DNA of 64,000 nt from Apostichopus japonicus (Eukaryota; Echinodermata; Holothuroidea; Aspidochirotida; Stichopodidae), in contig NC_092576.1 of NCBI RefSeq assembly GCF_037975245.1, positions 40,941,611 to 41,005,610 on the forward strand, given 5' to 3'. The position numbers were made by a program, and so were the translations under genes. The notes under the pieces were generated by a model. The model was not told where the DNA came from, did no database searches, and saw only the letters and a program-made list of their open reading frames with translations. Shown here in pieces: positions 19,372-46,300 of this stretch (its first letter is position 1; each line of letters opens with the position of its first letter).

Positions 19372-22300
19372 GTACTGTTAGATCTTGTTGATAGATAAAC
19401 AATTATATAAAGTAGATATTCTTGATTGACCTCTTTTCTTAATAATATTATGATTTACTAGATACAGTATGAAAATGAAATAGTATTTAAGAAACTTGTT
19501 TGCAGATATGTTAGATGGTAAGATTGGGAAGTGTATGTTCTGCTGGGATGTAAACACAATTGTTAACATACAATGCTGAAACATGATAAATCAAAACCAT
19601 TTCCCTCAGAAATTTTTGGTTTAGAACACATCAGCTAAATGAGTGTCTACTCTACAGGTGGGTCTTTTCATTTAAAATTCTTTGATCATGCTAAAAACAA
19701 AACTGAACTTAAATAGAAAACAAGCATTCTTTTAATACTTTATAAATAATTATTGTTTTTAGATGTTAGGATTCACAATCTTCTGTTGAATCTGATAAAT
19801 TCTAATATTCAGACTCTTTACAATGAAATTTTGTTATATTTACCTTTAAAAAAGAAATACTGTAAACAAGGAATGGTTTACTGAAAATAAAAGTTTTGCA
19901 CATTGCCTGAATGTTGTGAAACCTGTCAAGGTTCTTGCTGACATGATGATCATGGTCTGTAAATAAAAAAAAAAATTAACTCCTGTTTTTTGTTATTCCA
20001 TTTTCAGGTTACTTTCAAAGTGATATCAGGAACCTGTCTGGTAATGATGACAGACAAGGAAAATATGAAGACTTTGTGATGAAACAAGAGGTTGACAACC
20101 AAGATGAAGATGTAATGGAAGATTATGGTCAGTTTATGCATAAATTATAAAGTTAATAAGTGAGAGGTTTTTGCAAGTTACGTTCCATTTATGATCCAAG
20201 GTGTTTCGTAAAAGTAGCTGAATGTAAACAGATGGCTTAATATGTTCCATTGTACATAGGGCATGTGTATGATGTGTTAATTGGTCATCTGTTCCCTATT
20301 GATGACATCTGACTGAAGAGTAGGTTTAAGAAGTTCACACAGAAGATGCCAAAACAGTCTCCAATTAGTCTTCTCCATTAATTATTGCAACAGTAACACT
20401 AGATTTAACCTTTCTTACAACCTTACTCAATATATGCAGGAAACTGCCACAATAATCAGGATTCAATAGTACTTAGCAAGATCTCTTCTAAGCAATATAA
20501 CATGTCTTGCAGGCTTGGGGCGATTACATCTGAATGTAATGGATTACGATTACGATTACTTGAGAATGTATGATTACGATTACAGCCTAAAGTTGAAGTA
20601 ATCGATTACGATTACGATTACATTGTAATGTAATCGTGATTACAATCATGATTACATTGTGGTTACTTGCACAATCCTCTGCATATCTGTTTAATATAAC
20701 TCTCTGCCGGGAAATAGGGCAATGAAATAGGGCAAAGGAAGGGCATTTACAGTATGGATACAGACAAAATTGTGGAAGTATATCTACAATTCCTACCAGG
20801 CATTACACATTTATGCCTTAACACGTTTAAGATGTGTAACCCATAAGTCCAGTAAAAAATACAATTTAAACAGACAATTTAAATAGACAACCAGTTGTGT
20901 ATGCAAAAGGATTGTGAACGCTGAGAGGCAGCATTGAACAGAATAATTCAGGTGATAAAAAATCCTTGAATATGGTGATCAAATCCCCAGTACTTCTTAG
21001 TATAGGTTAATTGTGCTAGAGAATTCTAGAAGCAGGAACACTTCTTTGGTCACACTAAAAGCCAATAGTAAGAATTAGTTTTAATCATTTCTACTAATTT
21101 TGCCCTTCTCATTCAAATTTCACTGTAATCATAAATGTTATACGATTACGATTACTTTGCCCTTGTAATCGATTACGATTACTTTGTAATTTTCACTAAA
21201 GTAATCGATTACGATTACGATTACTTCAAAAAATGTAATCGATTGTAATCGATTACGATTACTGATTACGATTACCCCAAGCCTGATGTCTTGCGGAAAG
21301 GAAATTTGAAGGTATTCTCTTAGCACATCTTGTCTCAACATATTCCCAATTTGAAAGTCAACTCAATGCCGCCCTCTGCTTCTAGCGACAACAGATTCAT
21401 TTCTTTTAATGTGGCATGTGCATCCTTAGCTATAAACAGCATACGAATCTGGGTACTGTTACCACAAAGTTCTCAGGTGTCCTAGATTCCAATCCGTATC
21501 TCTGTTCTCCTATAGGACTACTGTATAACTGTACTGTGTGTTATGTGCGAGCAACTTTCCGCTTGTTCACGATAGTGCTAGCTGTATGCAAGTTTTCAAT
21601 TGGCTGTGGAGCAGTGCGTATTGTGTTGCTGGGAAACGTTATACCAGCTCGTAGGAGTCATATTGGCCTCTGAAAATTTCCTAGAGGAGTTATACCTTTA
21701 ATTCTGAGATGCGCTTGTAAGGAGTGTGATGTTACTGGGAGAACTACAGGAGGATGCAATGGAAAGAAGTTATTTAACTTTGACCACATCATTCACTTCG
21801 TTGTTGCCAGATGAATGCACATAATACCGCCAAATTGAGAAAATTTCATATCTTTGCCATACAAAATGCTATAAGAATATGGTTTTGACCTTAAAATGCA
21901 GATAATTGCTGGCATGTTTTCTGCATAAATCATATTCATAATTCAATTACCAGAATATCATTTTGGCATGTACAAATTTGTTGTAATATTGTAACCAATT
22001 TTGTATTTATTTACAATCAGATCTTGCAGATGTCAACATTAAGCGAGAGCTGCAGGATGATAATGTGCAAGTAATAGGTAAGAAATTTTTGATTGTAACT
22101 TTAAAGGTCTACTGACAACTAGACAATATCCCCCATAGTAATAGGTAAGAAACTTTTGATTGTAACCTTAAAGATCTATTGACATCTGGACAATATGCCC
22201 CATAGTAATAGGTAAGACACTTTGTAACTTTAAAGGTCTACCCACAACTAGACAATATGCCCCATAGTAATAGGTACAGTAAGACACTTTTAATTGTAAC

Positions 22301-43300: not shown

Positions 43301-46300
43301 GGTAAGACACTTTGTAACTTTAAAGGTCTACCCACAACTAGACAATATGCCCCATAGTAATAGGTACAGTAAGACACTTTTAATTGTAACTTTAAAGGTC
43401 TACCGACAACTAGACAATATGCCCCATAGTAATAGGTAAGTCACTTTGTAACTTTAAAGGTCTACCCACAACTAGACAATATGCCCCATAGTAATAGGTA
43501 AGTCACTTTGTAACTTTAAAGGTCTACCCACAACTAGACAATATGCCCCTTAGTAATAGGTAAGACACTTTGTAACTTTAAAGGTCTACCCACAACTAGA
43601 AAATATGCCCCATAGTAATAGGTAAGACACTTTGTAACTTTAAAGGTCTAGCCACAACAAGACAATATGCCCCATAGTAATAGGTAAGACACTTTGTAAC
43701 TTAAAAGGTCTACCCACAACTAGACAACATGCCCCATAGTAATAGGTAAGACACTTTGTAACTTTAAAGGTCTACCGACAACTAGACAATATGCCCCATA
43801 GTAATAGGTACAGTAAGTCACTTTTAATTGTAACTTTAAAGGTCTACCGACAACTAGACAATATGCCCCATAGCAATAGGTAAAACACTTTGTTACTTTA
43901 AAGGTCTACCAACAACTAGACAATATGCCCCATAGTAATAGGTAAGACACTTTGTAACTTTAAAGGTCTACCCACAACTAGACAATATGCCCCATAGTAA
44001 TAGGTAAGACACTTTGTAACTTTAAAGGTCTACCCACAACTAAACAATATGCCCCATAGTAATAGGTAAGACACTTTGTAACTTTAAAGGTCTACCCACA
44101 ACTATACAACATGCCCCATATGAATAGGTAAGACACTTTGTAACTTTAAAGGTCTACCGACAACTAGACAATATGCCCCATAGCAATATAGGTAAGACAC
44201 TTTGTAACTTTAAAGGTCTACCCACAACTAGACAATGTGCCCCATAGTTATAGGTACAGTAAGACACTTTTCATTGTAACTTTAAAGGTCTACCGACAAC
44301 TAGACAATATGCCCCATAGAAATAGGTAAGTCACTTTGTAACTTTAAAGGTCTACCCACAACTAGACAATATGCCCCATAGTAATAGGTAAGTCACTTTG
44401 TAACTTTAAAGGTCTACCCACAACTAGACAATATGCCCCTTAGTAATAGGTAAGACACTTTGTAACTTTAAAGGTCTACCCACAACTAGAAAATATGCCC
44501 CATAGTAATAGGTAAGACACTTTGTAACTTTAAAGGTCTACCCACAACTAGACAATATGCCCCATAGTAATAGGTAAGACACTTTGTAACTTTAAAGGTC
44601 TACCCACAACTAGACAACATGCCCCATAGTAATAGGTAAGACACTTTGTAACTTTAAAGGTCTACCGACAACTAGACAATATGCCCCATAGTAATAGGTA
44701 CAGTAAGACACTTTTAATTGTAACTTTAAAGGTCTACCGACAACTAGACAATATGCCCCATAGCAATAGGTAAAACACTTTGTTACTTTAAAGGTCTACC
44801 AACAACTAGACAATATGCCCCATAGTAATAGGTAAGACACTTTGTAACTTTAAAGGTCTACCGACAACTAGACAATATGCCCCATAGTAATAGGTACAGT
44901 AAGACACTTTTAATTGTAACTTTAAAGGTCTACCGACAACTAGACAATATGCCCCATAGCAATAGGTAAAACACTTTGTTACTTTAAAGGTCTACCAACA
45001 ACTAGACAATATGCCCCATAGTAATAGGTAAGACACTTTGTAACTTTAAAGGCCTATCCACAACTAGACAATATGCCCCTTAGTAATAGGTAAGACACTT
45101 TGTAACTTTAAAGGTCTACCCACAACTAGACAATATGCCCCATAGCAATAGGTAAGACACTTTGTAACTTTAAAGGTCTACCCACAACTAGACAATATGC
45201 CCCATTGCAATAGGTAAGACACTTTGTAACTTTAAAGGTCTACCCACAACTAGACATTATGCCCCATAGTAATAGGTAAGACACTTTTACTTGTAACTTT
45301 AAAGGTCTACCAACAACTAGACAACATGCCCCATATTCGGTACCTCTTTTGTGTGTGATAATTTCATTCAAAATCTGTTGAAATTTTTCAAAAAGCACTT
45401 CTCGTTTCCAAGATATACACATTTGAAGTTTGAGAAATCTGTGGAAACTCATTAAATATGTGCAACTATGACGTGAAGTGTTGTGCTAATCAAACTTTGT
45501 TAATGTACACATATATCATTTGAATAATGTGATGTTCCTCTTTTCAAGAAGACAATAAAGTAATTCAAAACAATCGCCATAGGCAACAATTTAACAAACC
45601 TGTGTTCAGTATTGAAACCAAGGTTGAAGAAACAAAGGAATAACATAACAGAATATTAGGCAGTCATTCTCTTTACATCATCAATGTGCATAATTAGCTA
45701 ATGTTTATTCATAAATGGAACTAGAATTAAGAAAAGACTTGTAAAATGGTCAATCTTTGATGGATTTTCATGGGAGTCACAGCCATTTTCATGATTACTA
45801 ATTTCTTTTAGAGTAATTAGGACAATGTTGTTCCTTGGTGTTTGTAGATCTTTACTAATTATGTATAATGTGTAGTTAAAAAACAGTTTGCTATTTCAAG
45901 AGGGTGGTGATTGATTGGATAAGTGTTTCTATTGTTAACCTGTTTTGTTTGAATTTCATAAACCCTGAAGACTACTTAACAAAATATGAGCAGTAACTTA
46001 TTTCCCCATTACAAGATGCAAGTTTTAGTGTAATTCATTATGGTGGTCTAAGGGGTAATTAACAACCAACATGATGATCATTTGCAGGTAATAATTTATC
46101 TGGTATCGCATCCCAAAATGCTTTGCAAAGATGGACACATTCCTCTACAAGTCCAAAGATCTATCACACTTTCTTTACACATGAATCAAACTATAAATAT
46201 AAATATAAATAAATATATATAACTATATTTATATAAAATATATATAATAAATATATTAAATATAATTAAAATATAATAAAAAATATTTATATAAAATATA

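What the first reader, a model, noticed from the sequence alone, without database searches (positions are those of the whole stretch)
22078..45335. A 23-kb intronic minisatellite built from about 365 copies of the host exon's own 5' splice site
The array starts at the exact base after exon c (ends ...GTAATAG), and almost every 62/72-bp unit junction reads TAATAG|GTAAG, repeating the exon's last bases plus donor. The intron thus offers hundreds of near-consensus U1 binding sites in tandem. Possible consequences: a U1 snRNP sponge or telescripting aid that blocks premature polyadenylation in a 24-kb intron; decoy donors affecting joining to the finger exon; zero-length-exon recursive splicing at AG|GTAAG; or none, if distant donors are ignored. 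Use of a downstream donor would extend the reading frame into TGA in the first unit, so choice of the first donor matters for making full-length zinc-finger protein.
Basis: partly seen in the sequence, partly recalled or inferred. Interest (0 to 1): 0.92.

Follow-up and report, generated by a model that had tools for sequence, protein, structure and literature searches.

The report
Giant exon-edge minisatellite repeating splice donors
A 23-kb stretch of repeats in an echinoderm-like genome was built by copying the end of an exon and its splice signal hundreds of times; it is an extreme case of a known kind of repeat, and the extra splice signals look ignored rather than used.

Summary
The array is real: 366 units (mostly 62 or 72 bp) run from eight bases inside exon c (22070) to 45335 and fill 95% of a 24.4-kb intron of a C2H2 zinc-finger gene. 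275 of 366 junctions keep AG|GTAAG. The unit looks locus-specific, although two loose genome hits were not placed.

The U1-sponge, telescripting and recursive-splicing readings gain no support. Donor bases are no better conserved than the rest of the unit here, and mid-range on average in 13 arrays. The array has no good acceptor. About one unit in six carries an insertion that spoils its donor. A predicted hairpin hides most copies but not the first; shuffles match it, and most other arrays do not repeat it.

Best explanation: a 'mirage', the published name for lancelet minisatellites that duplicate exon-intron boundaries; human IFI6 is a relative. The mitochondrial code makes this genome most likely echinoderm. 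It is not alone: 7 of 23 donor-bearing arrays sampled on contig C1 start at a homology-supported exon end (5 by Pfam, against 0 of 40 control flanks; 2 by PDB sequence, not run on controls). Donor-motif arrays exceed their reversed-motif control; acceptor-motif arrays do not. Splicing was not tested.

The parts
19255..19371 (+). coding exon a of host gene (117 nt, phase 1-1; VKQEP and IKEE motifs)
   Evidence: open frame joined through to the finger exon; GAG|GTACTG donor, score 2.98
20008..20127 (+). coding exon b (120 nt, phase 1-1)
   Evidence: ATG|GTCAGT donor, score 6.24
22021..22077 (+). coding exon c (57 nt, phase 1-1; [18 protein letters not shown]); last 8 nt belong to the repeat
   Evidence: acceptor pyrimidine content 0.65
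22078..22083 (+). the exon's own 5' splice site, TAG|GTAAGA
   Evidence: score 9.39; predicted U1 duplex -9.4 kcal/mol
22070..45335 (+). donor-seeded minisatellite (mirage-type), 366 units, 275 intact AG|GTAAG
22078..22211 (+). units 1 and 2 (67 bp each), the two weakest predicted local hairpins among the 275 canonical units
22113..22115 (+). in-frame TGA met if a donor other than the first is used; ends 29 nt before donor 2
45336..46526 (+). remaining 1.2 kb of the intron; no repeat similarity detected in its first 64 nt
   Evidence: 442 of 500 shuffles of 45336-45400 score at least as well against the unit; no loose core match outside the array in the window
46527..47644 (+). C2H2 zinc-finger exon with stop codon
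   Evidence: Pfam zf-C2H2 and zf-H2C2_2; the first 128 aa match only themselves in the genome

Best explanation
This is a 'mirage': a minisatellite born when a short segment spanning an exon-intron boundary (the last 8 nt of exon c plus the first ~59 nt of its intron) was tandemly duplicated. It then grew to 366 units, largely by duplication of multi-unit blocks. Every unit therefore carries a copy of the exon's 5' splice site by descent, not because donors are needed. Splicing most likely uses the first, exon-adjacent donor, chosen by its position next to exon c, and the whole array leaves with the intron. Rare use of a later donor would meet a stop after 11 intron codons and give a protein without zinc fingers. 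Shown: anatomy, donor counts, near-complete locus specificity, lack of donor-specific conservation, block duplications, and the same arrangement at other exons. Inferred: the seeding event, donor choice and fate of the transcripts.
For: Array start lies inside exon c and shares 8 exon nt plus the donor. Genome-wide, 239 of 239 exact matches to one unit core and 49 of 49 matches (up to 3 mismatches) to a unit-1 core lie in this array; a third, looser core gives 365 genome hits of which 363 are here. Growth by blocks: exact internal repeats up to 1359 bp; 92.6% of the array lies in exact duplicates of >=150 bp, while 22070-22402 and 45053-45335 do not. Donor columns are not more conserved than other columns (entropy 0.229 v 0.182, p 0.14). 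In 13 arrays the donor 7-mer sits at mean percentile 0.52 among unit 7-mers (range 0.21-0.95), neither kept nor purged on average. 7 of 23 other donor arrays start at the end of a homology-supported exon: 5 by Pfam and 2 by PDB sequence. Pfam on the right flanks gave 0 of 23 (18 fragments tested) and on control flanks 0 of 40 (20 fragments tested). [quoted passage not shown]).
Against: No RNA evidence from this genome. The eight shared exon bases could also have come from the array if it replaced an older exon end; no orthologue was available. Two hits to the loose core are outside the window and could not be placed, because only the first 100 places were listed; related sequence elsewhere is therefore not excluded. 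51 array donors score higher than the exon's own by a textbook matrix (27 TAGGTAAGT, 24 AAGGTAAGA), so ignoring them needs a positional rule. In human IFI6 some repeat donors are used (PMC4526556, passage read), so some use here is plausible. Against the strictest control (single AGGTRAG sites) the enrichment of other arrays at exons is weak (p 0.10 by Pfam alone).
Confidence: 0.8

Rival explanations
1. The donors are used: a set of downstream donors gives poison isoforms that tune the amount of zinc-finger protein, as a larger version of the human IFI6 minisatellite.
For: 275 donors are intact and 51 score higher than the first. IFI6 uses two downstream repeat units as donors, giving three mRNA species. 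TGA at 22113-22115 would truncate the protein.
Against: Donors show no extra conservation. Published lancelet cases are reported not to disturb splicing.
Confidence: 0.12
2. Self-masked decoys: each unit folds its donor into a 12-bp hairpin, and only the first donor is open, so structure tells the spliceosome which donor to use.
For: Consensus hairpin -10.7 kcal/mol; units 2 (-2.2) and 1 (-3.4) are the two weakest of 275 canonical units. Predicted accessibility of the first donor ranks 1 of 275 in six settings. One other array, L014, shows the same pattern (first 0.20, median of the rest 0.005, rank 1 of 53). Replacing unit 1 by the consensus lowers predicted first-donor accessibility from 0.119 to 0.035.
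Against: 131 of 1000 shuffled units fold at least as well and 123 of 400 shuffles hide the donor as well. 7.9% of randomly mutated units are as weak as unit 1. Stem columns are not significantly more conserved (p 0.08). In 11 of the 23 other loci tested, the first donor ranks first in only 2 and last in 3.
Confidence: 0.1
3. U1 sponge or telescripting: the array recruits U1 to protect a long intron from premature polyadenylation.
For: About 12 donor-like sites per kb; no AATAAA or ATTAAA in the array.
Against: The unit itself simply lacks the signal. Without the array the intron would be about 1.2 kb and need no protection. Donors are not conserved above background. U1 genes are numerous.
Confidence: 0.05
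4. Recursive splicing at zero-length AG|GTAAG exons.
For: AG precedes GTAAG in 275 units.
Against: Pyrimidine content upstream is 0.47 in the consensus, and another AG lies six bases upstream; real acceptors of this gene have 0.65-0.88.
Confidence: 0.02

Closest known systems
Lancelet 'mirages' (Adh3, TnC, globins BflGb6 and BflGb9, similar repeats in PGBD5); PMC3087553 and PMC3902484, passages read
   Same: minisatellite-like tandem duplication of an exon-intron boundary; many but not all units carry splice signals; cluster edges escape homogenisation
   Different: other phylum; BflGb6 has 6 and 3 units in its two haplotypes, here 366; length instability not testable here
Human IFI6 (6-16, G1P3) minisatellite; Turri, Cuin and Porter 1995, not held, known from its title in reference lists and one sentence in PMC4526556
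   Different: its downstream donors are reported as used; smaller unit and array (recalled, not checked)
Intron gain by tandem duplication of AG/GT segments (Rogers model, as described in the passages of PMC3087553)
   Same: duplicates AGGT-bearing segments
   Different: no new intron is seen here; the unit lacks a good acceptor
Recursive splice sites and U1 telescripting (recalled)
   Same: AG|GTAAG motif; U1 complementarity
   Different: no pyrimidine tract, no conservation of the motif above the rest of the unit

Membership tests
mirage minisatellite | tandem units span an exon-intron boundary | tested here: met
   the repeat starts with the last 8 exon nt and runs into the intron start
mirage minisatellite | units carry splice signals | tested here: met
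   275 of 366 AG|GTAAG
mirage minisatellite | homogenised inside, edges excluded | tested here: met
   exact duplicates of >=150 bp cover 92.6% but neither end; units 366 (0.85) and 2 (0.87) are sixth and seventh lowest in identity to consensus, unit 1 (0.92) is not among the lowest 12
mirage minisatellite | does not disturb splicing | not testable with these tools
   no RNA data
mirage minisatellite | length instability between haplotypes | not testable with these tools
   one assembly only
IFI6-type multiple-donor minisatellite | repeat donors used in mRNA | not testable with these tools
   no RNA data
recursive splice sites | polypyrimidine tract before AG|GT | tested here: not met
   pyrimidine content 0.47 in the consensus unit
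functional U1 array | donor motif conserved above the rest of the unit (my own criterion) | tested here: not met

The most novel reading that the evidence does not exclude
In this probable echinoderm, 5' splice sites are preferred birthplaces of minisatellites: hundreds of genes carry donor-seeded arrays (7 homology-supported cases in 12.9 Mb of one contig would scale to several hundred), acceptors do not show the same excess, and a transcription- or splicing-linked DNA process, or strong tolerance of downstream donors, makes the difference. The window array, with 366 copies, is a very large member.
Probability: 0.3. Interest if true: 0.7.

Novelty: new member of a known kind. Interest (0 to 1): 0.5.

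Why it matters
One exon faces 275 near-identical donors in a row, 51 of them scoring higher than the right one. That is a natural test of how a spliceosome picks a 5' splice site by position alone. The sampled arrays suggest that mirages, which my searches found in print only for lancelets, are common in another phylum, so their origin could be studied genome-wide.

Tried and rejected
Self-masking hairpin: striking in this array, but matched by shuffles and repeated in few other arrays. Longer exon seed: similarity upstream of the last 8 exon nt is not above chance (464 of 2000 shuffles reach the consensus score, 1549 of 2000 the unit-1 score). Right-edge relic of the unit: none in 64 nt. Host-gene paralogue as outgroup: none found with the 128-aa spacer. 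Dispersed-repeat origin: disfavoured by 239 of 239 and 49 of 49 hits in this array, but 2 of 365 loose hits lie elsewhere and were not placed. Acceptor-motif arrays: 457 hits against 495 for the reversed control, no excess; none was fetched. Longest open frame into the first donor as a coding test: 13 of 23 arrays reach 40 aa, against 11 of 47 single AGGTRAG sites (p 0.008) and 33% of 516 random points (p 0.03), but rank tests on length are not significant (p 0.23). Papers: search listings only, except passages read in PMC2572611, PMC4526556, PMC2915984, PMC12783039, PMC3045353, PMC3087553 and PMC3902484. PMC12783039 and PMC3045353 (earthworm metallothionein, sea bream myostatin) do not describe this structure in the passages shown.
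Full report
What is there. The window is G000:C16:40941611-41005610 of a 671.6-Mb assembly in 35 contigs. A C2H2 zinc-finger gene on the + strand has exons a (19255-19371), b (20008-20127), c (22021-22077) and a finger exon (46527-47644); joined, they give one open frame, and exons a-c are multiples of three between phase-1 introns (one search had the first two junctions one base off). 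Exons further upstream were not sought. Pfam finds zf-C2H2 in the finger exon. The intron after exon c is 24,449 bp, 95.1% of it array.

The array. TRF: 62 bp x 365.7. 366 units by core search, 89 distinct sequences, mean identity to consensus 0.96. Junctions: AG|GTAAG at 275 of 366; TAG|GTACAG 54; TAG|GTAAAA 17; TAT|GTAAGA 8; others 12. By a textbook matrix (recalled frequencies) the exon's own donor scores 9.39, the donors of exons a and b 2.98 and 6.24; 51 array donors score higher than the exon's own. 42 U1 matches passed the cut-off on C20, and the three copies fetched start ATACTTACCTGG.

Origin. Identity with the unit starts 8 nt inside exon c. Beyond those 8 nt there is no significant similarity. 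239 of 239 exact genome copies of a 21-mer core are in this window, as are 49 of 49 copies, with up to 3 mismatches, of a unit-1 core. A third, looser core has 365 genome hits, 363 of them here; the other two were not in the listed places and remain unplaced. Import from a large dispersed family is therefore unlikely, but a relative elsewhere is possible. Long exact internal repeats (1359 bp at offset 1307, 877 at 965, 846 at 2289) show growth by blocks; the two ends stayed outside. The seed is most simply a tandem duplication across the exon-intron junction. That the array replaced an older exon end cannot be excluded without an orthologue.

Not alone. I searched the genome for three AGGTRAG motifs in a row. 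With gaps of 45-75 there are 2130 + 1917 hits against 1180 + 1124 for the reversed motif; this window gives 153. With gaps of 14-44: 1852 + 1394 against 1279 + 1066. These are hits, not arrays, and large arrays weigh more. The first 100 places listed in each search reach about 12.9 Mb on C1 and fall into 23 loci, all of which I fetched. For each I took the longest open frame running into the first donor; 16 of 23 were at least 20 aa. Pfam supports a coding exon up to or near the donor in 5 of 23: Saf4/Yju2 (matched to the last residue), two neighbouring amino-acid transporter copies (to residue 100 of 104), an AAA/P-loop exon (best match nSTAND3, E 6.5e-6, just under its curated cut-off) whose locus also holds neuron-navigator exons, and a TIL domain (to residue 57 of 68). 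PDB sequences support two more, transportin-3 (E 1.3e-7, to residue 74 of 75) and USP6NL (1.1e-6, to 53 of 54), out of four tried. So 7 of 23, or 6 if the neighbouring transporter copies count once.

Controls. Right flanks of the same arrays: 0 of 23, 18 fragments tested. Twenty reversed-motif arrays (fetched): 0 of 40 flanks, 20 fragments tested. The PDB search was run only on four donor-array fragments, so the like-for-like Pfam comparison is 5 of 23 against 0 of 40 (Fisher p 0.005) and against 0 of 23 right flanks (p 0.049). A harder control is single AGGTRAG sites outside arrays: 54 sites, less 6 in a second array in L010, leaves 48; 30 of 31 eligible fragments were tested and 3 gave a Pfam exon, all in genes picked for their arrays. 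5 of 23 against 3 of 48 gives p 0.10, 7 of 23 gives p 0.01. Enrichment is therefore suggestive, not settled. Array density, counted by me from the lists: 14 donor arrays (45-75 gaps) in 12.9 Mb against 20 control arrays in 53.5 Mb, or 6 control arrays in the same stretch of C1. Acceptor-motif arrays show no excess in hits (199 + 258 against 227 + 268).

Does it do anything? If donors were needed, they should be kept better than the rest of the unit. They are not: entropy 0.229 for donor columns, 0.182 for the others, p 0.14. If they were harmful, they should be purged. On average they are not: I gave 14 of the 24 arrays (window plus 13 loci); in the 13 with a usable consensus the donor 7-mer's mean percentile is 0.52. 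Several of these (among them L015, L017 and L022) have no homology support for an exon at the donor. That fits donors that are neither used nor dangerous. Recursive splicing lacks a pyrimidine tract. A hairpin that pairs each donor with GGTCTACC looked promising: the first donor is the most accessible of 275 in six settings, and units 1 and 2 have the weakest hairpins. But shuffles do as well, and in 11 other loci the first donor is the most open in 2 (one of them L014, clearly) and the least open in 3. The gene's other real donors, a and b, are not especially open either (0.057, 0.017). I set it aside as a lead.

Comparison with what is known. Passages of PMC3087553 describe 'mirages' in lancelet: tandem repeats spanning exon-intron boundaries, with AG/GT signals in many but not all units, length-unstable, and apparently without effect on regular splicing; PMC3902484 adds PGBD5 and mentions TnC. 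Human IFI6 has a minisatellite whose downstream donors are used. The anatomy here meets the mirage definition; the splicing and instability features could not be tested. The genome is not a lancelet: in mitochondrial COX1, AAA falls where the conserved motif STNHKDIG (recalled) has Asn, ATA falls at Ile-type positions and AGA at Ser positions. That is the echinoderm and flatworm code (recalled); echinoderm is much the likelier. Two searches for mirages or exon-boundary minisatellites with echinoderm or sea-urchin terms listed only the lancelet papers as relevant; this does not show that none exist.

Verdict. It is a very large new member of a known kind, and a good natural test of donor choice.

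Noticed in passing
window 47518-48402: A 124-bp unit repeated 7.3 times holds the last zinc finger, the stop codon and the start of the 3' UTR: the same gene also has a tandem duplication at its coding end.
   Followed up: no
window 3436-3846: A 99-bp x 4.1 repeat overlaps the end of a NACHT open frame (1904-3523); the unit holds AAAGAG|GTAAAA, possibly a second small boundary repeat in the same window.
   Followed up: no
G000:C20:29019462-29087219: At least 42 U1 snRNA matches, most in tandem at about 855-bp spacing and nearly all alike in score.
   Followed up: no
window 46080-46095 and 46520-46540: The intron end holds TTTGCAG|GTAATAAT, and the finger exon starts CAG|GTAATGGTAATAG: two AG|GTAAT sites that resemble recursive splice sites; only the second has a good pyrimidine tract (0.88 against 0.47).
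   Followed up: partly
L007, L008 (G000:C1:2432000-2479500): Two neighbouring amino-acid transporter copies about 41 kb apart carry donor arrays of the same 76-bp kind at the same exon, with different lengths (1.6 and 3.1 kb), so array length can be compared between paralogues.
   Followed up: partly
G000:C4:2704162-2707406 (-): An 83-bp acceptor-motif array whose unit reads like an exon start (TTTGCAG|GACATGAATGATATG...), perhaps a 3'-boundary mirage.
   Followed up: no
G000:C29:14745-31219: COX1-like pieces on a second short contig (C29, 31,219 bases) besides the 16,099-base mitochondrial contig C35, possibly a second mitochondrial assembly or a nuclear copy.
   Followed up: no
G000, outside the window; place not listed: Two of 365 loose matches to the unit core lie elsewhere in the genome and could be single-copy relatives of the repeat.
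   Followed up: partly
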